The position numbers and the translations under genes are program-made. The notes below the pieces were generated by a model. The model saw only the letters and a list, made by a program, of their open reading frames with translations. It had not been told where the DNA came from and searched no databases. Below, one piece after another: positions 37,127 through 49,974 of a stretch of 64,000 bases of DNA. The stretch lies in IMG/VR virus record IMGVR_UViG_3300042463_000878, positions 1-64,000 of that record. The stretch is one strand, 5' to 3'. How positions within the stretch are numbered: the stretch's first letter is position 1; each line of letters opens with the position of its first letter. Source of the DNA: a virus.

Positions 37127-37200
37127 GGCTTCGTAGCTCAATTGGACAGAGCAACACACTTCTAATGTGTAGGTTACTGGTTCGAATCCAGTCGAGGTCA
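37127..37200 (+). tRNA. tRNA-Arg(TCT)
   Basis: Cloverleaf with 7-bp acceptor (GGCTTCG / CGAGGTC), D arm, anticodon loop CTTCTAA giving TCT, and T arm GGTTCGAAT. CCA is not encoded. It reads AGA/AGG, frequent Arg codons in this A+T-rich genome. Confidence 0.95.
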
Positions 37201-37214
37201 CTAAAATTTATTAT

Positions 37215-37466
37215 ATGGGAAGACATGACAATATCTTAGAACAAGAACACAACGAGTTTGTTAATAGCGAACTATTTTGTCAAATGATTACGGAAAAAAT
37301 AGAAAATTCACATTTTCATAAATATGATGGTATAACACCTGAAGGGTTTTTACTTATACCCGAACAAACCTTAGAAAGGTTGAAAGATTTTGAAACTTGG
37401 AAAGAGTGGAAAAATAATCCATCAATTTTAAAAAAAATGATGATTGACGATTTAAAAAATGAATAA
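37215..37466 (+). CDS. Hypothetical protein, 83 residues
   Basis: Acidic, helical, tryptophan-containing (FETWKEWKNNPSILKKMM). Not recognised. It directly follows tRNA-Arg and may be transcribed with it. Confidence 0.5.
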   Translation: MGRHDNILEQEHNEFVNSELFCQMITEKIENSHFHKYDGITPEGFLLIPEQTLERLKDFETWKEWKNNPSILKKMMIDDLKNE

Positions 37467-37470
37467 TTTT

Positions 37471-37500
37471 TTTGTAGATTAAAAAAAAATAGTACATTTG
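37471..37500 (+). promoter_or_regulatory. Host-like promoter, leaderless
   Basis: TTTG at 37471, 18 bases, TACATTTG at 37493-37500, then 4 bases to ATG 37505. Confidence 0.72.
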
Positions 37501-37504
37501 TGGT

Positions 37505-38212
37505 ATGAAATATTCAGCACTTAAAGACATCGTTTATATTGGTTTGATGGTTTTTGTTATCGGAGGAACCAATGAGTATTTGGAAAAATACGACTATAGT
37601 TATGACAAAGTAATGGGTTCTTTGGAGTCTGAGGCAAAAAGACTTGACAAAGTTTACGGTTATGACAAGAACTATTCAAAAGAAGAAGAGGTTAAAATTA
37701 CTGATTCAAAACAACCATCTTCAACTGAAGTTAGTTCTGACCGAGTAATCAACATCCACGGTTTTGGTAAATATACTCAAAGTGACCTTTATACAATCAA
37801 AGAAGGTGTTGAAAACTTCTACGGTATCCGTTGTGTCATCTCTGAAAGTGTTGAGTCAGATGATTTTTACTATGACAATAACACTAACGTATTATTAGCG
37901 TACAAAGTATTAACATTATCTGTTGGTAAATCAAATATGAATATGTATGTTACTGACGAACCATTATGTAATGAAAATTCTAATGATTTGATTAGTGGAC
38001 ACGCAAGAATTAATTGTGACGGCTCTGTTATCAGTACTAAAGAAATGAGAAACAACAATCACTATAATAATACTAGTTTAGTTCATACTGCGGTACACGA
38101 ATTAGGACATAACTTTGGGTTATCTCACTGTAATAACCAATCTTGTATCATGAAATCTCACGGTTTAGACACTAAAGAGTTCTGTAATGAGTGTAAATTA
38201 AAAATTAATTAG
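37505..38212 (+). CDS. Membrane-anchored archaemetzincin-like metallopeptidase
   Basis: 235 residues. A hydrophobic anchor at about 8-22 (DIVYIGLMVFVIGG), a variable acidic linker, and a metzincin domain: VHELGHNFGLSHC has HExxHxxxxxH, followed by CIMKSHG and two CxxC-like Cys (FCNECKLKI) that bind a second zinc in archaemetzincins (M54). This is a close motif match to AMZ proteases, whose substrates are little known. Possible target: host envelope or cytosolic peptides. It has its own leaderless host-type promoter, so it is probably made early. Confidence 0.82.
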   Translation: MKYSALKDIVYIGLMVFVIGGTNEYLEKYDYSYDKVMGSLESEAKRLDKVYGYDKNYSKEEEVKITDSKQPSSTEVSSDRVINIHGFGKYTQSDLYTIKEGVENFYGIRCVISESVESDDFYYDNNTNVLLAYKVLTLSVGKSNMNMYVTDEPLCNENSNDLISGHARINCDGSVISTKEMRNNNHYNNTSLVHTAVHELGHNFGLSHCNNQSCIMKSHGLDTKEFCNECKLKIN

Positions 38213-38240
38213 TGATAATTTTTTTACATCAATAAACAAA

Positions 38241-38266
38241 AAAAGGGGGATAATTCCCCCTTTTTT
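38241..38266. terminator. Terminator between convergent genes
   Basis: AAAAGGGGGA / TTCCCCCTTTT with a short loop, between the archaemetzincin and the minus-strand holin-like gene. Confidence 0.82.
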
Positions 38267-38287
38267 CTTTGATTTGGTATTTATCAA

Positions 38288-38452
38288 CTATTTCTTTTTA
38301 GAAATAATTGACCACACACCACCTACAAGTGTAACCGCTGCTCCGATAAGTTCTTGTACTGATGAATCAGTTGCAAGACCTTTCATAATCAGGATACCAC
38401 CTACAAAAGTAAGTGCGTGTCTAACGATACCTTGGATTTGTTCTTTAGTCAT
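38288..38452 (-). CDS. Holin-like protein, 54 residues
   Basis: Starts MTKEQIQGIVRHALTFVGG and ends VGGVWSIISKKK, a pattern found in small phage holin-like proteins: one amphipathic or membrane segment, a second hydrophobic stretch and a basic tail. A TATTTATA motif lies upstream on the same strand (plus 38484-38491), which decides in favour of this strand over the overlapping plus-strand frame. Possible partner of the endolysin. Confidence 0.65.
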   Translation of the reverse strand: MTKEQIQGIVRHALTFVGGILIMKGLATDSSVQELIGAAVTLVGGVWSIISKKK

Positions 38453-38483
38453 TTTTAATGTTGATTAAAGGTTTATGCCAGAC

Positions 38484-38491
38484 TATAAATA
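38484..38491 (-). promoter_or_regulatory. Putative late promoter motif TATTTATA (minus)
   Basis: 32 bases before the holin-like start. Confidence 0.5.
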
Positions 38492-38511
38492 TCAAAAAAA
38501 TAGTAAAACAG

Positions 38512-38553
38512 TCTTTTGGTCTAATGGTAGGACCCGTGGTTTTGGGTTAAAAG
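38512..38553 (+). other. tRNA-like fragment
   Basis: TCTTTTGGTCTAATGGTAGG reads like a tRNA 5' half with a D arm (GGTC...GACC), and a Gly/Thr-rich arm follows, ending AAAAGA that pairs with TCTTTT. There is no T arm. Possibly a degenerate tRNA. Confidence 0.25.
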
Positions 38554-38619
38554 ATAAAAATTTTAATTTATTAGTTTAATATTTTTCGCACAAGTAGACT
38601 CCGATTACAAAATTTTTTG

Positions 38620-38627
38620 TATCTTTA
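38620..38627 (+). promoter_or_regulatory. Host-like -7 element TATCTTTA, leaderless
   Basis: 4 bases before ATG 38632; no clear -33 TTTG. Confidence 0.55.
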
Positions 38628-38631
38628 CAAT

Positions 38632-39126
38632 ATGAAAGACTCACTACCATATTGTAATACAGAAAAAGCGATTAAAGGTTATGAAGAATCCCAAATTGCG
38701 AAAAATGAAAAAAATGATTGTGTTGTAAGAGCATTCGCATCTTGTTTTGATGTGTCTTACAATTATGCTCACGGATACGTTAGAGATAACTTTGGTCGTA
38801 ATAACCGTCAAGGAACTTATGGTACTGTAAATAAAATGACCAAACTTGCGGAGAATAGAACTCAAATAAATTACAAAAAAGTTAAATGTGTTGGTAAATT
38901 AAACAATTACAATAGACGCACATTAGAATATACCGTTAACGTAAAGGGTGAAAAGGTTAACCGTAAAATGACTGTTGGTACTTTTACAAAACAAAACCCT
39001 GTTGGGACATTTTTTATGTTAGTTAGTCGTCACGCTTTCACAATTAAAGATGGTGTTGTGATTGGTAACTATGAAGATTCAACCAAGAAAAAACGTATAT
39101 TGTTTTATGCGTTTGAAGTAAAATAA
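38632..39126 (+). CDS. Possible papain-like cysteine peptidase fold
   Basis: 164 residues from ATG 38632; the longer frame overlaps the promoter. NDCVVRAFASCFDVSY places a Cys at the start of a helix, and FFMLVSRHAFTIKDGVVIGN gives a His followed by Asp/Asn on the next strands, the order of papain-like Cys-His-Asn enzymes. A basic Asn/Arg/Lys-rich loop lies between. Without a search it could equally be an inactive relative or an unrelated phage protein. Confidence 0.45.
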   Translation: MKDSLPYCNTEKAIKGYEESQIAKNEKNDCVVRAFASCFDVSYNYAHGYVRDNFGRNNRQGTYGTVNKMTKLAENRTQINYKKVKCVGKLNNYNRRTLEYTVNVKGEKVNRKMTVGTFTKQNPVGTFFMLVSRHAFTIKDGVVIGNYEDSTKKKRILFYAFEVK

Positions 39127-39147
39127 TAAAAAATATTTTACAAATTG

Positions 39148-39179
39148 TTTGGCAAATCAAAAGTGATTATATATCTTTG
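39148..39179 (+). promoter_or_regulatory. Host-like promoter, leaderless
   Basis: TTTG 39148-39151, 20 bases, TATCTTTG 39172-39179, then 4 bases to ATG 39184. Confidence 0.78.
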
Positions 39180-39183
39180 TGAT

Positions 39184-39384
39184 ATGGAAATAACAATTAA
39201 CATACCCAATAGTGTTCTTAATAGAATGAAAGAACTCAAAATTACAGACGAAAATATTCAAAAAGAAATGGTAATTGATTTTATCAACGACTCTTTGGAC
39301 TCACATTACGCCAACGGAATGTTTGATAAATTCAGAAAATGGACATTAAAAAATGATAATTTTGAAGTTTATTTGGTAGATTAA
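39184..39384 (+). CDS. Hypothetical protein, 66 residues
   Basis: ITINIPNSVLNRMKELKITD at the start has the look of a small ribbon-helix-helix or coiled DNA-binding protein, but this is only a resemblance. The start at 39184 is fixed by the promoter position. The tRNA promoter begins inside its 3' end. Confidence 0.5.
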   Translation: MEITINIPNSVLNRMKELKITDENIQKEMVIDFINDSLDSHYANGMFDKFRKWTLKNDNFEVYLVD

Positions 39385-39402
39385 AAAAAGTTTGTATCTT
39401 TG
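39372..39402 (+). promoter_or_regulatory. Host-like promoter of the tRNA array
   Basis: TTTG 39372-39375, 19 bases, TATCTTTG 39395-39402. No CDS starts soon after; the transcript leads into five tRNAs. Confidence 0.8.
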
Positions 39403-39404
39403 TA

Positions 39405-39583
39405 AGGCAAACAACGGGGGTAGGAAGTGAGAGGTTGATGTCCTACTCCCGTAAAGAAAGAAGAAGTTCATTGACATTAAAATATTGTGGTGGTAAGAAA
39501 CGGGAAACTTGTAAAGTACATTAACCTGTTGACATAAGATGGTGAAACGAGAGTGTGTGTCAGCTACTTAACTGCAAATAAAT
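39405..39583 (+). ncRNA. Structured leader of the tRNA array with boxA-like site
   Basis: Begins with a 12-bp hairpin (ACGGGGGTAGGA at 39414-39425 / TCCTACTCCCGT at 39441-39452). GTTCATTGACAT at 39466-39477 resembles rRNA boxA antitermination sites. The remaining 100 bases hold no tRNA or ORF. Similar boxA-like words stand before the large RNA and before tmRNA. Confidence 0.5.
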
Positions 39584-39657
39584 GGTAACTATAGCTCAGT
39601 TGGTAGAGCAAAGGTTTGTGGTACCTTGTGCCATGGGTTCAATTCCCATTAGTTACC
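39584..39657 (+). tRNA. tRNA-His(GTG)
   Basis: Acceptor GTAACTA / TAGTTAC plus the extra G-1 at 39584 facing C73, the histidine identity pair; anticodon loop TTGTGGT. Confidence 0.93.
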
Positions 39658-39669
39658 CAAAAAAAATAT

Positions 39670-39743
39670 AGTTAATTAGCTCAGTTGGTTAGAGCAATTC
39701 CCTGATACGGAATAGGTCATTGGTTCGAGTCCAATATTAACTA
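39670..39743 (+). tRNA. tRNA-Ile(GAT)
   Basis: Acceptor AGTTAAT / ATTAACT, anticodon loop CTGATAC, T arm GGTTCGAGTCC. CCA is not encoded. Confidence 0.93.
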
Positions 39744-39748
39744 CATAT

Positions 39749-39821
39749 CGCGGGATGTGGAAATTGGTCATCCGCTCGGTCTCATAAGCCGAGATTACAG
39801 GTTCGAGCCCTGTTCCCGCAA
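39749..39821 (+). tRNA. tRNA-Met(CAT), initiator-like
   Basis: Anticodon loop CTCATAA gives CAT. The acceptor CGCGGGA / TCCCGCA leaves C1 opposite A72 unpaired, the mark of bacterial initiator tRNA, and the 3' end TCCCGCAAC matches fMet tRNAs. The three G-C pairs usual in the initiator anticodon stem are not all present, so elongator use is not excluded. Confidence 0.85.
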
Positions 39822-39828
39822 CAACAAA

Positions 39829-39889
39829 AGGGTAGAATATTCGTAAGGGCCTTTCCTGAAAGATGGCTAGCTAGGCCCGTGTCTACCCT
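39829..39889 (+). ncRNA. tRNA-sized nested-hairpin RNA without a T arm
   Basis: AGGGTAGA (39829-39836) pairs perfectly with TCTACCCT (39882-39889), and inside it GGGCCT (39847-39852) pairs with AGGCCC (39873-39878). The outer stem has acceptor length, but no T arm or recognised anticodon arm is present. It lies in the array between tRNA-Met and tRNA-Glu. Confidence 0.5.
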
Positions 39890-39896
39890 GATTTTT

Positions 39897-39968
39897 GGTC
39901 CCATCGACTATCGGTTAGGTCGTCAGGTTTTCATCCTGGAAAGTCGGGTTCGATTCCCGGTGGGACTA
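39897..39968 (+). tRNA. tRNA-Glu(TTC)
   Basis: Acceptor GGTCCCA / TGGGACT (one G-T pair), D arm GACTATCGGTTAGGTC, anticodon loop TTTTCAT, T arm GGGTTCGATTCCC. Confidence 0.93.
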
Positions 39969-40081
39969 CTATAGCCAACCAAGCTTTACTACGATAAGGG
40001 TTCATACCTTGACTTTACTAAATAAACGCTTAATAGAACAAAGTACAAGTTCAGAGTGAGGAGCGGGTCTCACAAACTTTT
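39969..40081 (+). ncRNA. Spacer RNA between tRNA-Glu and tRNA-Asp
   Basis: No complete tRNA or ORF. A GTGAG / CTCAC hairpin lies at 40056-40073 and a short arm AAGGGTTCATACCTT near 40000. It may be a degraded tRNA or processing spacer. Confidence 0.3.
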
Positions 40082-40154
40082 GGTCCCGTGGTTGAATGGT
40101 TACAATTCCACCCTGTCACGGTGCGAGATACGGGTTCGAATCCCGTCGGGACCG
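40082..40154 (+). tRNA. tRNA-Asp(GTC)
   Basis: Acceptor GGTCCCG / CGGGACC with discriminator G, anticodon loop CTGTCAC, T arm GGGTTCGAATCCC. Last tRNA of the array. Confidence 0.94.
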
Positions 40155-40177
40155 CAAAATAATGAATAATAACTATT

Positions 40178-41854: not shown

Positions 41855-43066
41855 ATGAGAAGTTATATTAACGAGAAGCCCGAATCGGTCCAACCTTTAA
41901 AATATAGTAATGTTAATTTTAAACAAATTGGTCACGGTAATCCCGCCTCTGATAAAATAAACCCATCTTTATTAATGGACGTAAATTTAGCAGCTAAAAA
42001 CGCTAATGTTATGGCCAGTGTAACAACCGCAGTTTCAGGACATAAAAAAGGTACTAGACATGAGCTTGGTTTGGCGGTTGATTTGGCAATGTTTGATAAT
42101 AAAGGTTACGGTAGTAAAGAAAGTGCTCAAAAAAAAGGTATTTACGATAAAATTGAAAAATTTGTTAGAACCCTAGAATCTATGGGGTATAAAGTAAATT
42201 CTGAACGAGGTAACGATAAAGCCGTTTTATGGTTTGGATTCCCAAATCATCATCATCATGTTCATGTATCAAGAAAATCTGATAATGGTACGTCTACAGG
42301 GAGTGATACTCAATCTACAAATTTTAAAAACTTACCTGAAAAAATTAAATCCTCGATAAATAAATTAAAAACAAAGTATGGTATTAACATTACTCAATCA
42401 CATATTGATAAAGAATTTAAACAAGAAGGTAATATACAACCAGATAATGGAGGGATTAATAACGAAGCTAAGAAAAGTATTGAAAAATTAATAAAAGATT
42501 GTAAAAAAGCAAACCCTAAAATTCGGTTTCCCGACGGTATTGTTTCTGATTATAGAAGTTATGATGACCAAGTAGATAATTTTGGAAAAAAAGCTAAAGA
42601 TAGGGGTGTTGATGACACACAAAAGTATAACACAATTCCTGGTTTTTCTCAACACCACACAGGAAAGGCCTTTGACATATTTAGTACTGAACCTAGTTGG
42701 TGGGATACAAATTCAGGGGTTAAAAATTGGGTTGCGGATAATTGTAAAAAATATGGGTTTAAGGTAACTTACAATGTTGATGGGGTACTTAGAAAAAAAG
42801 AACCTTGGCATTTATTCTATATTGGTAATGAATCAATCACAACAACGTCTAATTCAACTAACGATTCAACCTCTAACTCAACTTCTATCTCAACTAATGA
42901 TTTGACTAATGATTTGACTAATGATTTGACTAATGATTCATCACAAAGTAACGACGTTATCCAAAAATTTTTAAGCCCATTGTTAGGTTCTTTAGGGTTT
43001 AAAGAAGGTGAGGAACCAACCAATAAATTGATTGAGGATATTAAAAGAATTAAAAATTTATTATAA
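41855..43066 (+). CDS. Protein with two tandem M15-type peptidase domains
   Basis: 403 residues. First domain: GTRHELGLAVDLAMF at about 67 and NHHHHVHVSRK at about 136 hold the His-Asp-His zinc set. Second domain: SQHHTGKAFDIF at about 266 and EPWHLFYIG at about 312, the VanY/DacC form (SxHxxGxAxD, ExxWH). Both would cut peptidoglycan peptides. N-terminus RSYINEKPES carries an INE motif and the C-terminus KLIEDIKRIKNLL is shared with the next protein. Probably a virion-borne wall-degrading enzyme. A Thr/Asn/Asp repeat linker precedes the end. Confidence 0.75.
   Translation: MRSYINEKPESVQPLKYSNVNFKQIGHGNPASDKINPSLLMDVNLAAKNANVMASVTTAVSGHKKGTRHELGLAVDLAMFDNKGYGSKESAQKKGIYDKIEKFVRTLESMGYKVNSERGNDKAVLWFGFPNHHHHVHVSRKSDNGTSTGSDTQSTNFKNLPEKIKSSINKLKTKYGINITQSHIDKEFKQEGNIQPDNGGINNEAKKSIEKLIKDCKKANPKIRFPDGIVSDYRSYDDQVDNFGKKAKDRGVDDTQKYNTIPGFSQHHTGKAFDIFSTEPSWWDTNSGVKNWVADNCKKYGFKVTYNVDGVLRKKEPWHLFYIGNESITTTSNSTNDSTSNSTSISTNDLTNDLTNDLTNDSSQSNDVIQKFLSPLLGSLGFKEGEEPTNKLIEDIKRIKNLL
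42899..42934 (+). repeat. Three 12-bp repeats coding DLTN
   Basis: Three identical GATTTGACTAAT units in the linker of the M15 protein. Confidence 0.9.
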
Positions 43067-43758
43067 TGGAAAAATTTATTAACCCAGCCCCGTATGGTAA
43101 TATGAAATCATCTATGATGTCAAAATCTGTTGATTTAATTGCATACCCAAATTCAAAATTAATAAATCCGTATGACGGTGTTATTATTTTTGACAGAACA
43201 CCTTCTTGTGAAAATTTTATTAAAATTAAACATGAGTTTAATGGTGATGATATATATTCCGAATTTTGTAATGTCGGTAAATCATTTGTTTCACCAGGCG
43301 ATAGAATAAAACAAGGTCAAATTATTGGGTATTTCACTGACGATAGAATTAGTTACTCAATAAAAAACAATGATGATAAAAAATTAGACGTATCAACATA
43401 TCTAAAAGGGGTTGGTCCTAAAAAAGAAGAGCCTAAAAAAGAAGAACCTAAAAAAGAAGAACCTAAAAAAGAAGACCCTAAAAAAGAAGACCCTAAAAAA
43501 AATAAACCAATACAAGATGACCCTAAACTTGATAATGACCCTAAACTTGATATTGGAAATAAAAATGTTGGGTCTGGTAATGTTTTCTTAGACACATTAT
43601 TATCCCCATTTTCAATTGCCAATGATATTACCAAAGGTGTCGGTAAAAACATCAAAGGTGTCGGTAAAAACATTAAGACAGCTTTCAAAGAAGATTATGG
43701 TAATAATAAAAGACTTGTCGAACAAATAGATAAGATTAAAAAAATTATAAATAATTAA
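43066..43758 (+). CDS. LytM/M23-like protein with degenerate active site
   Basis: 230 residues. About 30-105 matches the M23 beta core (INPYDGVIIFDRT, FIKIKHEFNGDDIYSEFCNV, GDRIKQGQIIGYF), but the usual HxH ligand pair is not clear, so it may bind rather than cut peptidoglycan. A Lys/Glu/Pro repeat linker follows (six KKEEP-like units), then a C-terminal KRLVEQIDKIKKIINN related to the end of the 41855 protein. The two genes are joined with start and stop overlapping. Confidence 0.6.
   Translation: MEKFINPAPYGNMKSSMMSKSVDLIAYPNSKLINPYDGVIIFDRTPSCENFIKIKHEFNGDDIYSEFCNVGKSFVSPGDRIKQGQIIGYFTDDRISYSIKNNDDKKLDVSTYLKGVGPKKEEPKKEEPKKEEPKKEDPKKEDPKKNKPIQDDPKLDNDPKLDIGNKNVGSGNVFLDTLLSPFSIANDITKGVGKNIKGVGKNIKTAFKEDYGNNKRLVEQIDKIKKIINN
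43417..43500 (+). repeat. 15-bp Lys/Glu/Pro-coding repeats
   Basis: About five and a half units of CCTAAAAAAGAAGAR in the linker of the 43066 protein. Confidence 0.9.
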
Positions 43759-43762
43759 ACAA

Positions 43763-43788
43763 TCCCCCTTTTTTAGGGGGTTTTTTTT
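43763..43788 (+). terminator. Rho-independent terminator
   Basis: CCCCCT / AGGGGG stem, a T-rich loop and eight Ts after the 43066 gene. Confidence 0.88.
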
Positions 43789-43893
43789 CTTTAAAAAAAA
43801 ATTTAGTAAATCAAAAAAGTTTACTTATCTTTGTACAACAAAAGAGATAGATAACAATTCAGATACAAATCTTAAAAAAAAAATAAAAAAAGA

Positions 43894-43925
43894 TTTGGTA
43901 AATCGAAAAAGTTTACTTATCTTTG
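43894..43925 (+). promoter_or_regulatory. Host-like promoter, middle copy
   Basis: TTTG 43894-43897, 20-base spacer, TATCTTTG 43918-43925. Confidence 0.8.
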
Positions 43926-43984
43926 TACAACAAAAGAGATAGATAACGATTCAGATACAAATCTTTAAAAAAAATAAAAAAAGA

Positions 43985-44016
43985 TTTGGTAAATTGAAAA
44001 AGTTTACTTATCTTTG
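43985..44016 (+). promoter_or_regulatory. Host-like promoter, third copy, proximal to the large RNA
   Basis: TTTG 43985-43988, 20-base spacer, TATCTTTG 44009-44016; RNA likely begins near 44021. Confidence 0.82.
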
Positions 44017-44020
44017 TAAA

Positions 44021-44970
44021 ACAAATCGGAAGAGTCCGAAACGTTCTTTGAAATATTATTATCCATTACAACACTTCGGTGTTGTATAAAAGATAATCGG
44101 CCGTATATGGTCGTTAAATAAACCTCGAAAGGGGGATAAAGTGAAATCATCGTGTTAATGGTTTTGCGGTTCGGGTAACCGAACTCGAGTATACAAGTGG
44201 GATATCAGTGAGCCTGTAGTACCGAGGATAACTTCGTAGGGAAATGGAAAACTGAACGGGCAATGTGGATTGTCAGTTTGAGGTGGGAACACCAATAAGA
44301 ATAACCCATAGGGGCCAAGTGAGAAGTGTACTCCAAATACACAATTGCGGGTCCCAATATAAGAGGTGACTTAAAACCGAAGGGATAAAACCTGAAGGTA
44401 AGATAGAGAACGAGTGGTGTCGCTAATATCCTTACCACAGACCCACCAAGGTCTTGGTACGAAGTAATCTTAAAATATGAGAGTGGGGACACTCTACCGA
44501 GTAGAAAAGTATCTTGTTGTTCAAAAGACAACGAGGCTTAAGACGGACCTCTACTTGGAATCATCCACAACACATAACTTATACTAAATTTAAGTAAAAC
44601 TAAAATAACTATAAGCAAAAGTGTTCGTCAGGTTTTGATGAAAGTCGCCTACATAGTCATGAGTTGTTCATGGCATACCGAGACCGCAAGTCAACGTATA
44701 TTGTTACCAAAAACCTCTAAGGAGTCGAATCCTAAGTCAGTTCGCAAGATTGAGGAGAGTAGAGTAGTAATAGAGTAGTTAAAACCTTAAGAAGTGATTG
44801 GTCTAACCAATCGGCGATGAGGATTACCATTCAAAAGATGGTGGAAATGAAGGGAAACAATAATCCTTCTAAAGATTCTCACAAAACGGTGTATTCTCAG
44901 CCCTTTTTAAAATTACCCAATATATAGAATACGATTTTTAATCAAACCTCAATAATCTTGGGGTTTTTTT
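44021..44970 (+). ncRNA. Large structured non-coding RNA (about 0.95 kb)
   Basis: No credible ORF on either strand; richer in G+C than its neighbours. Flanked by three promoters and a terminator. Hairpins by eye: 44026-44039; ACAACAC with a TTCG loop (44068-44085) inside ATTATC/GATAAT; GGTTCGG with a GTAA loop (44168-44185); AAACTGA/TCAGTTT (44249-44279); GGTG with a GGAA loop (44282-44293); GTGTA/TACAC; GGTAAG/CTTACC (44397-44436); AGAGTG with a GGGA loop (44480-44495); CTTGTTGT/ACAACGAG (44513-44535); GATTGGT/ACCAATC (44796-44812); AGGATTA/TAATCCT (44820-44877). Several GNRA loops suggest tertiary contacts. Size and phage location near tRNAs recall GOLLD- and ROOL-type large RNAs, but identity to them is not established. 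Confidence 0.8.
44043..44054 (+). promoter_or_regulatory. boxA-like site in large-RNA leader
   Basis: GTTCTTTGAAAT closely matches bacterial rRNA boxA antitermination words, 26 bases after the -7 element. Confidence 0.45.
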
Positions 44971-44971
44971 A
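44945..44971 (+). terminator. Terminator of the large RNA
   Basis: AACCTCAA / TTGGGGTT with a TAATC loop and seven Ts. Confidence 0.85.
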
Positions 44972-45005: not shown

Positions 45006-45038
45006 ATAAAAAAACCCCACCTTTTTAAGATGAGGTTT
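45006..45038 (-). terminator. Terminator of tmRNA (minus strand)
   Basis: On the minus strand AAACCTCA pairs with TGGGGTTT, followed by a T run, 7 bases beyond the tmRNA 3' end. Confidence 0.8.
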
Positions 45039-45044
45039 AATTAG

Positions 45045-45431
45045 TGGAGGTAGAGGGGTTCGAACCCTCGTGTTGTACACCTTACCTATTAAGGACTACA
45101 CGCTTAGGATAACATTTTCTAATGTTCCAAAAATAGTTAGTTCGTTCTTCACCATCGTAAACTAACAACCAATGGATGACTCAATTTTGGGTTCAGTCAT
45201 TTTTCCACCCTTGTAAAGACTTCTGTTCCTAGGTTGTATGTCCACCGACCCGTATGGTTGTTTCCTATATGTTAGGCAACTACCGCAGCGTCTTCACGGA
45301 TTAATCCGATTGTCGCCATTTTGTTTAAAACGTTTCCGTTTACTGTTTACATCCGTAGATTTAAGTGAAAGGATACATCTCACTGCGTGCCCCGAATAAC
45401 TAACAATGCCAGTCAATTCCAAGTTACCCCC
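45045..45431 (-). ncRNA. ssrA: tmRNA
   Basis: 387 bases on the minus strand. 5' end GGGGGTAACTTGGAATTGAC is the standard tmRNA start; the 3' end has T arm GGGTTCGAACCCC and closes a 7-bp acceptor (GGGGGTA / TACCTCC) with discriminator A. Genomic CTA stands where CCA would be. The tag frame ends at TAA 45274-45272 and reads ATIGLIREDAAVVA if it resumes at the GCG after 45317. That end, AAVVA, differs from the usual ALAA. tmRNA rescues stalled ribosomes and marks products for degradation. Phage copies are uncommon. Confidence 0.92.
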
Positions 45432-45457: not shown

Positions 45458-45488
45458 CAAAGATAGTAAAGTCTTATTAATTACCAAA
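45458..45488 (-). promoter_or_regulatory. Host-like promoter of tmRNA
   Basis: On the minus strand TTTG (45488-45485), 19 bases, TATCTTTG (45465-45458). Confidence 0.82.
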
Positions 45489-47923: not shown

Positions 47924-47947
47924 AAAAGGGGTTATTCAACCCCTTTT
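47924..47947. terminator. Bidirectional terminator at the clpC end
   Basis: AAAAGGGGTT / AACCCCTTTT with a four-base loop overlaps the clpC stop codon. Confidence 0.8.
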
Positions 47948-49974
47948 CTTTTTCGTGTAACTTTCTTCACTTCTTTAAATTTAACATCCCCATTTTCACT
48001 AATTAACGTATATTTAGTGTTTTCTTGAATGTTACTCTTAAGAACTTCTTCCGATATAAAGTCTTCAATTTTATCTTGAATAGCCCTTTTCAATGGACGA
48101 GCCCCATACATGTCATCAAACCCAACCTCAGAAATCATATCGACAAGTGAGTCATCAAATATTATATTATATTTAAGACCCGTTAATCTTTCTGATAAGA
48201 CACTCAACTCAAGTTTAACAATTTTTTTAACATCTTCTTTCACTAATGAATTAAAAATAATGACTTCATCAATACGGTTTAAAAATTCAGGGGCAAAAAA
48301 CTTCTTAAGCTCTTTCTTCAAAACTTCTCTTTTTTGTTCTTCTTCAACGTAAGAACTTGAGCTAGTTTTAAACCCTACTCCAGCACCAAAATCTTGTAGT
48401 TTCTTAACCCCAACATTTGATGTCATAATAATAATACAGTTTTTGAAATTAATCTTTCTTCCCATACCATCAGTTAGATGACCGTCATCCAACACTTGTA
48501 ATAATGTTGAGAATATGTCTTTGTTTGCTTTTTCAATCTCATCAAACAAAATTACTGAGTAAGGTTTGTTTTTAACTTGTTCGGTTAATTGTCCTCCTTC
48601 ATCATAACCAACATATCCTGGAGGTGCTCCAATTAATCTTGAGATACTATGTTTTTCTTGATATTCAGACATATCTACACGAATCATATTTTCCTGACTA
48701 CCAAACATTTGTTTTGCTAATTGTTTTGCTAAGTAGGTTTTACCCACACCTGTTGAACCAAGAAAAATAAATGAACCAATTGGTTTATTAGGGTCTTTGA
48801 TGCCTAATCTGTTTCGTCTGATTGACTTAGCGATTTTCATAACCGCCTCAGATTGCCCAATAACTTTATCAGATAAGTTTGCCTCCATTTCAGACAATAA
48901 TTTAGTTTCATCCGCATTTAGTTTACTGATAGGGATTTTGGTCATATTTGAAACAACCTCATAAACCAATTCAATAGAAACTTCTTTCTTCTTAACTAAA
49001 AGTTCATCTTCAAATTTTTTCTTCTCAACATCTAATTTATTAAGAATACGTTTTTCTTTATCACGTAAATTTGCAGCTTCTTCGTAATTTTGTTTTTTAA
49101 CAACATCAAGTTTTTCAATTTTAACATCTGTGGCCGCTTGTTTTAATTTTTCAATAATCTCAGGCATTTTAATTTCAACCTGACATCTTGCACCAACCTC
49201 ATCAATAATATCAAACGCTTTATCAGGGAACTCTCTATCCGTGATATATCTTGCGGCCAAATCAACACACACAGAAAGTACTTCATCAGTATAGGATACC
49301 TTATGGAATGTTTCGTACTTATCTTTAACATTTTTAAGAATCTCTAATGTTTCTTCTTTTGTTGAAGCGTCAACAATAACTTTTTGGAAACGTCTTTCTA
49401 ACGCTCCATCCTTCTCAAAGTTTTTACGATACTCATCAAGAGTTGTAGCACCAACACATTGAATTTCTCCACGAGCAAGTGCTGGTTTAAAGATATTTGA
49501 CGCATCTAAAGAACCTGATGAATTACCCGCCCCAACTATAGTGTGAATCTCATCAATAAACACAATGATATTTGGGGCGTTTTGTAATTCCTCAATAATT
49601 ACTTTCATACGTTCCTCAAACTGACCACGATATTTTGTACCCGCAACTATTGAAGTCATATCCAACGATACAATTCTTTTATCCATTAAATTTCTTGGAC
49701 ATTCGCCGTTAAAAATTTTAATTGCCAATCCTTCTACAATTGCAGTTTTACCACAACCAGGCTCACCAATAATAATAGGGTTGTTTTTCTTTCTACGAGA
49801 AAGAATTTGGGCAATCCTCGTAATTTCTCTCTCTCTACCAACAACAGGGTCTAATTTACCTTGTTCGGCTAATTTAATTAAATCTCTACTGAAGTTATCC
49901 AACACAGGTGTTGAAGAGTCAGATATTGATTTAGGTGGGTTATTCTTCCCCCCGTTGTCCACAGATTCTATCAT
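47932..49974 (-). CDS. clpC: ClpC-type AAA+ unfoldase lacking the N-domain
   Basis: 680 residues, two AAA+ modules. First: GEPGCGKT (Walker A) with FIDEIHTIVGAG; second: GSTGVGKTYLAKQLAKQM with VILFDEIEKANKDIF. Between them NYEEAANLRDKEKRI is the UVR motif that marks ClpC/ClpE. GAGVGFKTSS holds a VGF-type loop that could dock ClpP. The N-terminal double Clp_N repeat (about 140 residues) is missing; a short polar segment replaces it, so adaptor use must differ. No clpP is nearby, so it would need the host peptidase. Upstream on the minus strand is TACCTTTG (plus 50028-50035), a host-like -7. Confidence 0.93.
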   Translation of the reverse strand: MIESVDNGGKNNPPKSISDSSTPVLDNFSRDLIKLAEQGKLDPVVGREREITRIAQILSRRKKNNPIIIGEPGCGKTAIVEGLAIKIFNGECPRNLMDKRIVSLDMTSIVAGTKYRGQFEERMKVIIEELQNAPNIIVFIDEIHTIVGAGNSSGSLDASNIFKPALARGEIQCVGATTLDEYRKNFEKDGALERRFQKVIVDASTKEETLEILKNVKDKYETFHKVSYTDEVLSVCVDLAARYITDREFPDKAFDIIDEVGARCQVEIKMPEIIEKLKQAATDVKIEKLDVVKKQNYEEAANLRDKEKRILNKLDVEKKKFEDELLVKKKEVSIELVYEVVSNMTKIPISKLNADETKLLSEMEANLSDKVIGQSEAVMKIAKSIRRNRLGIKDPNKPIGSFIFLGSTGVGKTYLAKQLAKQMFGSQENMIRVDMSEYQEKHSISRLIGAPPGYVGYDEGGQLTEQVKNKPYSVILFDEIEKANKDIFSTLLQVLDDGHLTDGMGRKINFKNCIIIMTSNVGVKKLQDFGAGVGFKTSSSSYVEEEQKREVLKKELKKFFAPEFLNRIDEVIIFNSLVKEDVKKIVKLELSVLSERLTGLKYNIIFDDSLVDMISEVGFDDMYGARPLKRAIQDKIEDFISEEVLKSNIQENTKYTLISENGDVKFKEVKKVTRKRKGVE

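What the first reader, a model, noticed from the sequence alone, without database searches (positions are those of the whole stretch)
43802..44971. About 0.95-kb highly structured RNA driven by three tandem promoters
An island richer in G+C than its surroundings, without ORFs, carries many stable hairpins, including TTCG and several GNRA-type loops, and is bracketed by three stacked host-like promoters and a terminator. The promoter triplication suggests very strong expression. Large ornate phage RNAs such as GOLLD and ROOL are known, but nothing read here identifies this as a known class. It is the strongest candidate for an undescribed element in the window.
Basis: partly seen in the sequence, partly recalled or inferred. 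Interest (0 to 1): 0.9.

Follow-up and report, generated by a model that had tools for sequence, protein, structure and literature searches.

The report
GOLLD RNA of a Bacteroidota phage
The highly structured RNA in this phage is a member of a known family, GOLLD, of which one studied member assembles into hollow RNA cages; the one fresh lead is that in many related phages its gene sits beside a gene for ribosome-rescue RNA.

Summary
Window 44497-44903 (+) matches Rfam GOLLD (RF02032) end to end at 324.3 bits, E 4e-92. The upstream half (44022-44496), absent from the Rfam model, is GOLLD's variable 5' "cap" domain. Of 121 fetched phage loci, 93 align across both halves. Among 60 dereplicated sequences, covariation is significant for 56 of 120 pairs in the 5' half and 45 of 107 in the 3' half. 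Contacts matching published cage bridges by position covary, so assembly into a GOLLD-type cage is likely but not shown. Tandem 92-bp repeats carry three TTTG/TATCTTTG-type promoters; such arrays recur in relatives.

New lead: a phage tmRNA lies 139 bp downstream, convergent. In 25 contigs chosen by terminase, all 18 with GOLLD also carry tmRNA within 4.3 kb; mycobacteriophages show another arrangement. The coupling is not obligate: two complete 635-642 kb phages have GOLLD without a tmRNA over cut-off, and three phages have tmRNA without GOLLD. Function remains unknown.

The parts
43792..44025 (+). 92-bp tandem repeat (2.6 copies) carrying three promoters, cores at 43803-43833, 43895-43925 and 43986-44016
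   Evidence: promoter type recalled, no transcript data
44022..44912 (+). GOLLD RNA (start inferred from the third promoter; end from homology)
44022..44496 (+). 5' domain (cap in the published env-38 cage), not covered by Rfam RF02032
   Evidence: alignment A1; 56 of 120 consensus pairs covary significantly; z -3.75; in a permissive Rfam search of 43700-44500 the 5 matches with E up to 1 all lie upstream of it and below cut-off
44497..44903 (+). 3' domain, Rfam GOLLD model positions 1-416
   Evidence: 324.3 bits, E 4.1e-92; 45 of 107 pairs covary
44098..44113 (+). hairpin whose loop (44103-44108) pairs with 44189-44194 in the 5' domain
   Evidence: 60 of 60 sequences fully paired in 7 combinations, shuffles at most 35; 13 of 13 divergent representatives, shuffles at most 9
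44542..44629 (+). long-range helix 44542-44548 x 44623-44629 in the 3' domain
   Evidence: 59 of 60 fully paired, shuffles at most 24; 13 of 13, shuffles at most 9
44570..44612 (+). A-rich variable linker (corresponds by position to the disordered linker inside the env-38 cage)
   Evidence: 29-56 nt, 78% A+T; ARAGORN finds no tRNA inside the RNA in 60 of 60
44615..44687 (+). contact 44615-44616 x 44686-44687; by position the L20-J13/15 kissing contact (bridge B7, intermolecular in env-38)
   Evidence: 13 of 13 representatives paired, shuffles at most 11; 44616 x 44686 paired in 60 of 60, shuffles at most 42; naming is my mapping
44645..44817 (+). long-range contact 44645-44649 x 44813-44817
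   Evidence: 59 of 60 fully paired, shuffles at most 22; 13 of 13, shuffles at most 10
44722..44730 (+). loop corresponding by position to L21a (self-kissing bridge B8): window has CG
   Evidence: dinucleotide GC in 41, CG in 17, AT in 1, other in 1 of 60 (tallied); the published switch is GC to CG
44944..44966 (+). terminator-like hairpin of the GOLLD transcript
45012..45038 (-). terminator-like hairpin on the tmRNA side
45042..45431 (-). phage tmRNA, convergent with GOLLD, candidate tag GNVLNKMATIGLIREDAAVVA
   Evidence: RF00023 72.1 bits, E 4.3e-26; similar tag frame in relatives, one of them called by ARAGORN (L075); the window's own is missed by ARAGORN
45458..45488 (-). promoter-like site of the same type just upstream of the tmRNA
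37127..40155 (+). six tRNA genes (Arg, His, Ile, Met, Glu, Asp) 4-7 kb upstream

Best explanation
This is a GOLLD RNA of about 890-945 nt encoded by a large tailed phage, probably T4-like and probably of a Bacteroidota host. SHOWN by sequence: membership by Rfam score, two-domain anatomy, conserved secondary structure and long-range contacts, a promoter array upstream, a terminator-like hairpin and a convergent tmRNA downstream. INFERRED WITH GOOD SUPPORT (about 0.8): the RNA folds into a 5' cap and 3' ring and multimerises into a hollow RNA-only cage like the env-38 14-mer, because positions corresponding to bridges B7 and B8 keep pairing by compensatory change. INFERRED WEAKLY (about 0.3): the cage works in the phage's translation programme, for example by holding, shielding or presenting ribosomes, tRNAs or tmRNA, because in these phages its gene is embedded in a stable-RNA island (tRNAs, often a tRNA-Met beside GOLLD, and a tmRNA), and GOLLD is reported to bind ribosomes in pull-downs. 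In relatives where a tRNA abuts GOLLD, tRNA processing could set its ends; here a terminator probably sets the 3' end.
For: Rfam GOLLD 324.3 bits over all 416 positions. 50 of 50 records tested score over the GOLLD cut-off (all had been chosen because they looked like GOLLD). 93 of 121 loci align in one piece over at least 44130-44880. 102 of 234 consensus pairs covary significantly against tree-preserving nulls. Five non-nested contacts pair in 59-60 of 60 sequences where shuffles reach at most 42; four contacts hold in 13 of 13 representatives below 72% identity where shuffles reach at most 11. Promoter density upstream 2.88 per kb against 0.107 per kb per strand elsewhere; at least one in 41 of 59 loci, at least two in 23 of 59. 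tmRNA in 18 of 18 GOLLD-bearing contigs of the terminase-chosen set, all convergent, median gap 340 bp. Cage structure of env-38 GOLLD, bridges, ribosome pull-down and tRNAs in some linkers: PMC12286853 (sections 4, 7, 8, 9, 19 read).
Against: No transcript, no biochemistry. The 3' half alone does not fold significantly better than shuffles (z -1.59). Bridge names were assigned by approximate numbering from the paper, not by aligning env-38, whose sequence I did not have. A fifth long-range contact (44846-44894) is not beyond shuffles in the 13 divergent representatives, and a terminal helix pairs in only 49 of 60. The 5' block model finds no match in 10 other GOLLDs (mycobacterial, mycobacteriophage, Oceanobacillus, one further viral contig), so cap architecture and the number of chains per cage may differ. 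The translation link is not obligate: tmRNA is over cut-off in only 29 of 50 GOLLD records (many are fragments) and in neither complete 635-642 kb phage; no tmRNA appears in the stretches of four mycobacterial genomes that carry GOLLD; three other phage records have tmRNA without GOLLD. Shared descent and a general stable-RNA island could explain the neighbourhood.
Confidence: 0.85

Rival explanations
1. An undescribed class of giant phage RNA.
For: Large, ornate, no ORF; the 5' half has no Rfam match even at E up to 1.
Against: The 3' half is GOLLD end to end, and the 5' half lies behind the same promoters and is co-conserved with it in 93 of 121 loci. GOLLD is published as having a less conserved 5' region.
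Confidence: 0.02
2. The GOLLD cage has a late, lysis- or packaging-related role unrelated to translation; tRNA and tmRNA neighbours are there only because phages cluster stable-RNA genes.
For: Published rise of GOLLD during lysis (PMC12286853). The genes just upstream encode VanY- and M23-type peptidases. GOLLD without tmRNA and tmRNA without GOLLD both occur.
Against: Relatives of the two peptidase genes are found in only 6 and 5 of 59 other GOLLD loci, whereas tmRNA is found in 18 of 18 terminase-chosen GOLLD contigs; the two figures come from different samples (loci of a few kb against whole contigs) and are not like for like. Host-type promoters do not suggest purely late expression (inference).
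Confidence: 0.4
3. GOLLD is a decoy or shield against host defence (for example tRNA-cutting nucleases), protecting phage tRNAs and tmRNA.
For: A tRNA, mostly tRNA-Met, closely flanks GOLLD in 31 of 60 sequences; tRNAs sit inside the RNA of some mycobacterial and mycobacteriophage members.
Against: No direct evidence; in 60 of 60 sequences of this clade no tRNA lies inside the RNA; defence genes were not searched for.
Confidence: 0.15

Closest known systems
GOLLD RNA (Rfam RF02032; env-38 cryo-EM structure, PMC12286853)
   Same: Full 416-position 3' domain, about 0.9 kb length, separate 5' and 3' domains, A-rich linker, covarying contacts at the positions of published bridges, phage origin, tRNAs in the region.
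   Different: 5' domain could not be compared with env-38 (sequence not in hand); no tRNA in the linker; tandem Bacteroidota-type promoters and a terminator-like hairpin; convergent tmRNA next door.
GOLLD of cluster M mycobacteriophages (Rey, Bongo, Reindeer) and of mycobacterial genomes
   Same: Same 3' domain family (182-222 bits); in the phages a tmRNA is close by.
   Different: Lower score; no match to the 5' block model R1; in the phages the tmRNA is upstream on the same strand; tRNA inside the RNA in some; no tmRNA in the four mycobacterial genome stretches.
ROOL RNA
   Same: Large phage or prophage RNA that forms a hollow RNA cage (PMC12286853, read in part).
   Different: Sequence and fold reported as distinct; no ROOL match in the window.

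Membership tests
GOLLD (RF02032) | Covariance-model score above the curated cut-off (150 bits) | tested here: met
   324.3 bits, positions 1-416 of 416, not truncated
GOLLD (RF02032) | Length above 800 nt with a less conserved 5' region and a universally conserved 3' region | tested here: met
   44022-44912 aligns over both halves in 93 of 121 loci; 5' block model absent from 10 other GOLLDs
GOLLD (RF02032) | Secondary structure supported by covariation | tested here: met
   102 of 234 pairs significant (own script, structure predicted from the same alignment)
GOLLD (RF02032) | Conserved intermolecular bridges B7 (L20-J13/15) and B8 (L21a GC/CG switch) | tested here: met
   assignment of bridge names by position is inferred, and that the pairing is between chains is not shown here
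GOLLD (RF02032) | Variable linker lying inside the cage | tested here: inconclusive
   an A-rich 29-56 nt variable stretch is there; its place in a cage is not testable
GOLLD (RF02032) | Found in phages or prophages, often near tRNA genes | tested here: met
   six tRNAs at 37127-40155; terminase, portal and head protease in the window
GOLLD (RF02032) | 5' domain of the same type as env-38 | not tested
GOLLD (RF02032) | Homo-14-mer cage | not testable with these tools
   needs mass photometry or cryo-EM
GOLLD (RF02032) | Expression rises during lysis | not testable with these tools
   no RNA-seq available
ROOL, OLE, group I and II introns | Rfam match over cut-off | tested here: not met
   the 8 matches over cut-off in the window are GOLLD, tmRNA and six tRNAs
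tmRNA (RF00023), the neighbour | Covariance-model score over cut-off, G-U at the third acceptor pair, in-frame tag with stop | tested here: met
   72.1 bits against 47; acceptor strands GGGGGUA / UACCUCC read from the sequence; candidate tag frame similar in relatives

The most novel reading that the evidence does not exclude
GOLLD cages and phage tmRNA form one functional module: the cage handles stalled ribosomes, tRNAs or tmRNA during infection. The pair would have been kept or rebuilt in at least two arrangements (convergent downstream in phages like this one; same-strand upstream in other relatives and in cluster M mycobacteriophages), with a lineage-specific 5' cap that could change the cage.
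Probability: 0.2. Interest if true: 0.8.

Novelty: new member of a known kind. Interest (0 to 1): 0.35.

Why it matters
As an RNA it adds one more GOLLD to a described class. Its value is as a lead on GOLLD's unknown function. A large set of relatives gives strong covariation support for the 5' domain that the Rfam model omits and for contacts at the positions that bridge cage subunits, and the repeated neighbourhood with tmRNA points experiments towards ribosome rescue. Phages of the laboratory strain Mycobacterium smegmatis mc2 155 carry the same pair, so the idea can be tested in culture.

Tried and rejected
Undescribed RNA class: rejected by Rfam. Sigma-70 promoters: none listed at the site. 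A cultured Bacteroidota phage with GOLLD: the top-ranked one by terminase (Flavobacterium phage immuto, 27% identity; 15 of 2418 records were shown) has no GOLLD and no tmRNA; the other four comparison records also have no GOLLD. Bacteroidota-type cellular genomes: 18 pattern-matched loci examined, no Rfam match at all, so those were chance pattern hits; of the 120 cellular pattern loci, GOLLD was tested by Rfam only in these 18 and in 13 of the 19 sources, where 5 of the 13 were GOLLD. A conserved protein neighbour: none of 8 window genes has relatives in more than 11 of 59 loci (loci reach only a few kb). A tRNA inside the RNA in this clade: 0 of 60. Sums of log probabilities under random placement treat contigs as independent, which they are not, and are not used as evidence. 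The founding GOLLD papers are not held. The library holds 21 papers with the word GOLLD, some of them unrelated uses of the word, and 5 with GOLLD and tmRNA. Passages read in two of the five do not describe the pairing; the other three were seen only as listings. PMC5966550 (passages) reports tmRNA and an unnamed structured RNA of about 430 nt in mycobacterial tRNA arrays, which partly anticipates the neighbourhood.

Full report
WHAT IS THERE. The window is 64 kb of a 69,247-base virus record. It carries a terminase, a portal and a head maturation protease and six tRNAs. Position 44022-44912 is a G+C-richer stretch (39.8% against 31.4%) without a convincing ORF. An Rfam scan of the whole window gives GOLLD at 44497-44903 (+), 324.3 bits, E 4.1e-92, model 1-416 of 416, plus one tmRNA and six tRNAs, and nothing else over cut-off.

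THE HALF RFAM DOES NOT COVER. RF02032 models only the 3' domain. Of these 121 loci, 110 have a BLAST match to the GOLLD part and 93 align in one piece from 44130 or earlier to 44880 or later. Dereplication below 92% identity left 60 sequences including the window. On their alignment (A1; 887 columns kept of 1209) the consensus fold has 234 pairs. Against 20 null alignments that keep the tree and the substitution counts, 102 are significant: 56 of 120 in the 5' half, 45 of 107 in the 3' half, 1 in the remaining 7. This is my own R-scape-like script, not R-scape, and the structure was predicted from the same alignment. Single-sequence folding is significant for the 5' half (z -3.75) but not clearly for the 3' half (z -1.59).

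CONTACTS BEYOND THE NESTED FOLD. Several long-range contacts keep pairing by compensatory change: 44103-44108 with 44189-44194 in 60 of 60 sequences (shuffles at most 35), 44542-44548 with 44623-44629 in 59 of 60 (at most 24), 44645-44649 with 44813-44817 in 59 of 60 (at most 22), and single pairs 44616-44686 and 44846-44894 in 60 of 60 (at most 42 and 41). A terminal helix, 44887-44890 with 44900-44903, pairs in 49 of 60. The first three, and 44615-44616 with 44686-44687, hold in 13 of 13 representatives below 72% identity where shuffles reach at most 11; 44846-44894 also pairs in 13 of 13, but there a shuffle reaches the same value. In the env-38 cryo-EM structure (PMC12286853, sections 4, 7, 8, 9 and 19 read, and passages), L20 kisses J13/15 between chains (B7), L21a kisses itself across chains with a GC to CG switch (B8), and L27 pairs with J24/26. 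By position I equate 44615-44616/44686-44687 with B7, the loop 44722-44730 with L21a (GC in 41, CG in 17 including the window, AT in 1, other in 1 of 60; tallied), and 44846/44894 with L27-J24/26. These names are inferred by numbering.

PROMOTERS. A 92-bp unit is repeated 2.6 times at 43792-44025, with TTTG-N20-TATCTTTG in two copies and a variant of it in the first. I recall this as the Bacteroidota housekeeping promoter. Counting TTTG-N17-21-TAnnTTTG over 59 of the 60 sequences (one dropped for lack of upstream DNA), 41 have at least one and 23 at least two in the 400 bp upstream, 18 have none; the density is 2.88 per kb against 0.107 per kb per strand elsewhere. This strict pattern finds two of the three in the window. 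The stacked arrangement thus recurs, though not everywhere. A terminator-like hairpin lies at 44944-44966.

NEIGHBOURHOOD. A tmRNA lies at 45042-45431 on the other strand, 139 bp beyond the end of the Rfam match, with a promoter-like site at 45458-45488. ARAGORN misses it. Its candidate tag reads GNVLNKMATIGLIREDAAVVA. For a first count I took 50 records: the two huge phages, and 48 of the 80 IMG/VR loci shown, chosen for a BLAST match to GOLLD and a contig of about 22 kb or more (L051, 22.2 kb, was overlooked; L040, L046 and L052 were left out for lack of a BLAST match, although L040 and L046 later proved to carry both RNAs). All 50 score over the GOLLD cut-off and 29 have a tmRNA over cut-off, plus one at 45.6 bits. 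Of these 30, 29 lie within 7 kb; the exception is 127 kb away. Twenty-two are downstream and convergent, 8 upstream on the same strand. Some records are near-duplicates (L053 and L061; L070 is 98.8% identical to the window over the region). To avoid choosing by GOLLD, I chose contigs by terminase: the 25 of 80 that are at least 27 kb (one search kept the best 80 of 598). GOLLD is in 18 of 25 (17 over cut-off, one a fragment at a contig end), tmRNA in 19 of 25 (18 over cut-off); all 18 GOLLD contigs have tmRNA, convergent, at a median of 340 bp and at most 4.3 kb; 1 has tmRNA only (45.5 bits, 0.7 kb from a contig end) and 6 have neither. These contigs are close relatives (81-100% in the terminase), so this shows a conserved arrangement, not independent events. 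Against coupling: neither complete huge phage has a tmRNA over cut-off, four mycobacterial genome stretches with GOLLD show no tmRNA, and of five comparison phages without GOLLD three have tmRNA.

A DISTANT LINEAGE. Four pattern loci (L040, L046, L105, L121) proved to be mycobacteriophages (MrMagoo, Aziz, Rey and Reindeer; and equal record lengths), of cluster M (recalled; for Aziz also in the title of PMC7953290, listing only). There and in Bongo and prophiT49-2, GOLLD scores 182-216 bits with a tmRNA upstream on the same strand inside a tRNA array. PMC5966550 (passages) already notes tmRNA and an unnamed structured RNA of about 430 nt in such arrays. A covariance model of the 5' block 44187-44312 (R1, 29 sequences), searched in 41 sources of which many are fragments, hits the window and 12 other loci at 108-137.5 bits, and one truncated locus weakly; the window and L115 were among the sequences it was built from. 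In 94 of the 120 cellular pattern loci it has no match. It misses all 10 other confirmed GOLLDs whose 5' side was in hand: five cellular (L136, L145, L157, L173, L197) and five viral (L040, L043, L046, L105, L121), four of the latter being related mycobacteriophages. The cap is therefore lineage-specific at the sequence-structure level, in keeping with the published variability of the 5' region.

tRNA NEXT TO GOLLD. In the 60 sequences a tRNA on the same strand lies within 400 nt upstream in 20 (Met in 15) or within 150 nt downstream in 11 (Met in 8), 31 in all; none lies inside the RNA. env-38 was also found downstream of a Met-tRNA. The window has none abutting.

HOW IT LIKELY WORKS. Identity as GOLLD is close to certain. 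Assembly into a cage is likely because bridge positions covary. A role in the phage's translation programme is a weak inference from gene neighbourhood and from the ribosome pull-down cited in PMC12286853; a late or lysis role, or a shield for phage RNAs, are live rivals. The host phylum is inferred from promoter type and from the report that the huge phages above 634 kb are predicted to infect Bacteroidetes (PMC7162821, passages); I equate those with the two records by length.

LITERATURE LIMITS. Searches: GOLLD RNA, GOLLD, GOLLD with tmRNA, huge phages with tmRNA, cluster M, phage-encoded tmRNA (none), RNA nanocage with phage and ROOL. I found no statement of the GOLLD-tmRNA pairing in what I read, but most subscription papers, including the founding GOLLD paper, are not held.

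Noticed in passing
45042-45431 (-): Phage tmRNA missed by ARAGORN. Candidate tags found by a motif-guided script (which itself required an ending in A) end in -VA in 27 of 29 loci including the window's own copy, against -AA in L050 and -TA in L034; the usual ending -LAA is recalled. tmRNAs in the upstream arrangement have -AVAA-type tags. Surveys that rely on ARAGORN may miss this type.
   Followed up: partly
47932-49974 (-): Clp-type AAA unfoldase (phrog_4871, E 2e-237) 2.5 kb from the tmRNA; a relative is present in 10 of 59 GOLLD loci. A phage tag together with a phage unfoldase would be worth a look.
   Followed up: no
L018, L022, L033, L050, L093, L119, L008 (3' side of GOLLD): tRNA-Met(CAT) starts within 10 nt of the GOLLD 3' end in these 7 of 60 sequences; tRNA processing might trim GOLLD ends there.
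   Followed up: partly
L075 (contig G043: 19736-20149 and 36280-36673): One contig carries two complete GOLLD 3' domains 16 kb apart.
   Followed up: no
41855-43758 (+): VanY-type and M23-type peptidase genes directly upstream of the GOLLD promoters; the second has a KKEEP-type repeat stretch.
   Followed up: no
L136, L145, L157, L197 (mycobacterial genomes): GOLLD in four mycobacterial genomes; two lie among many tRNA genes (L145, L157), and three (L145, L157, L197) have a tRNA match inside the GOLLD match.
   Followed up: partly
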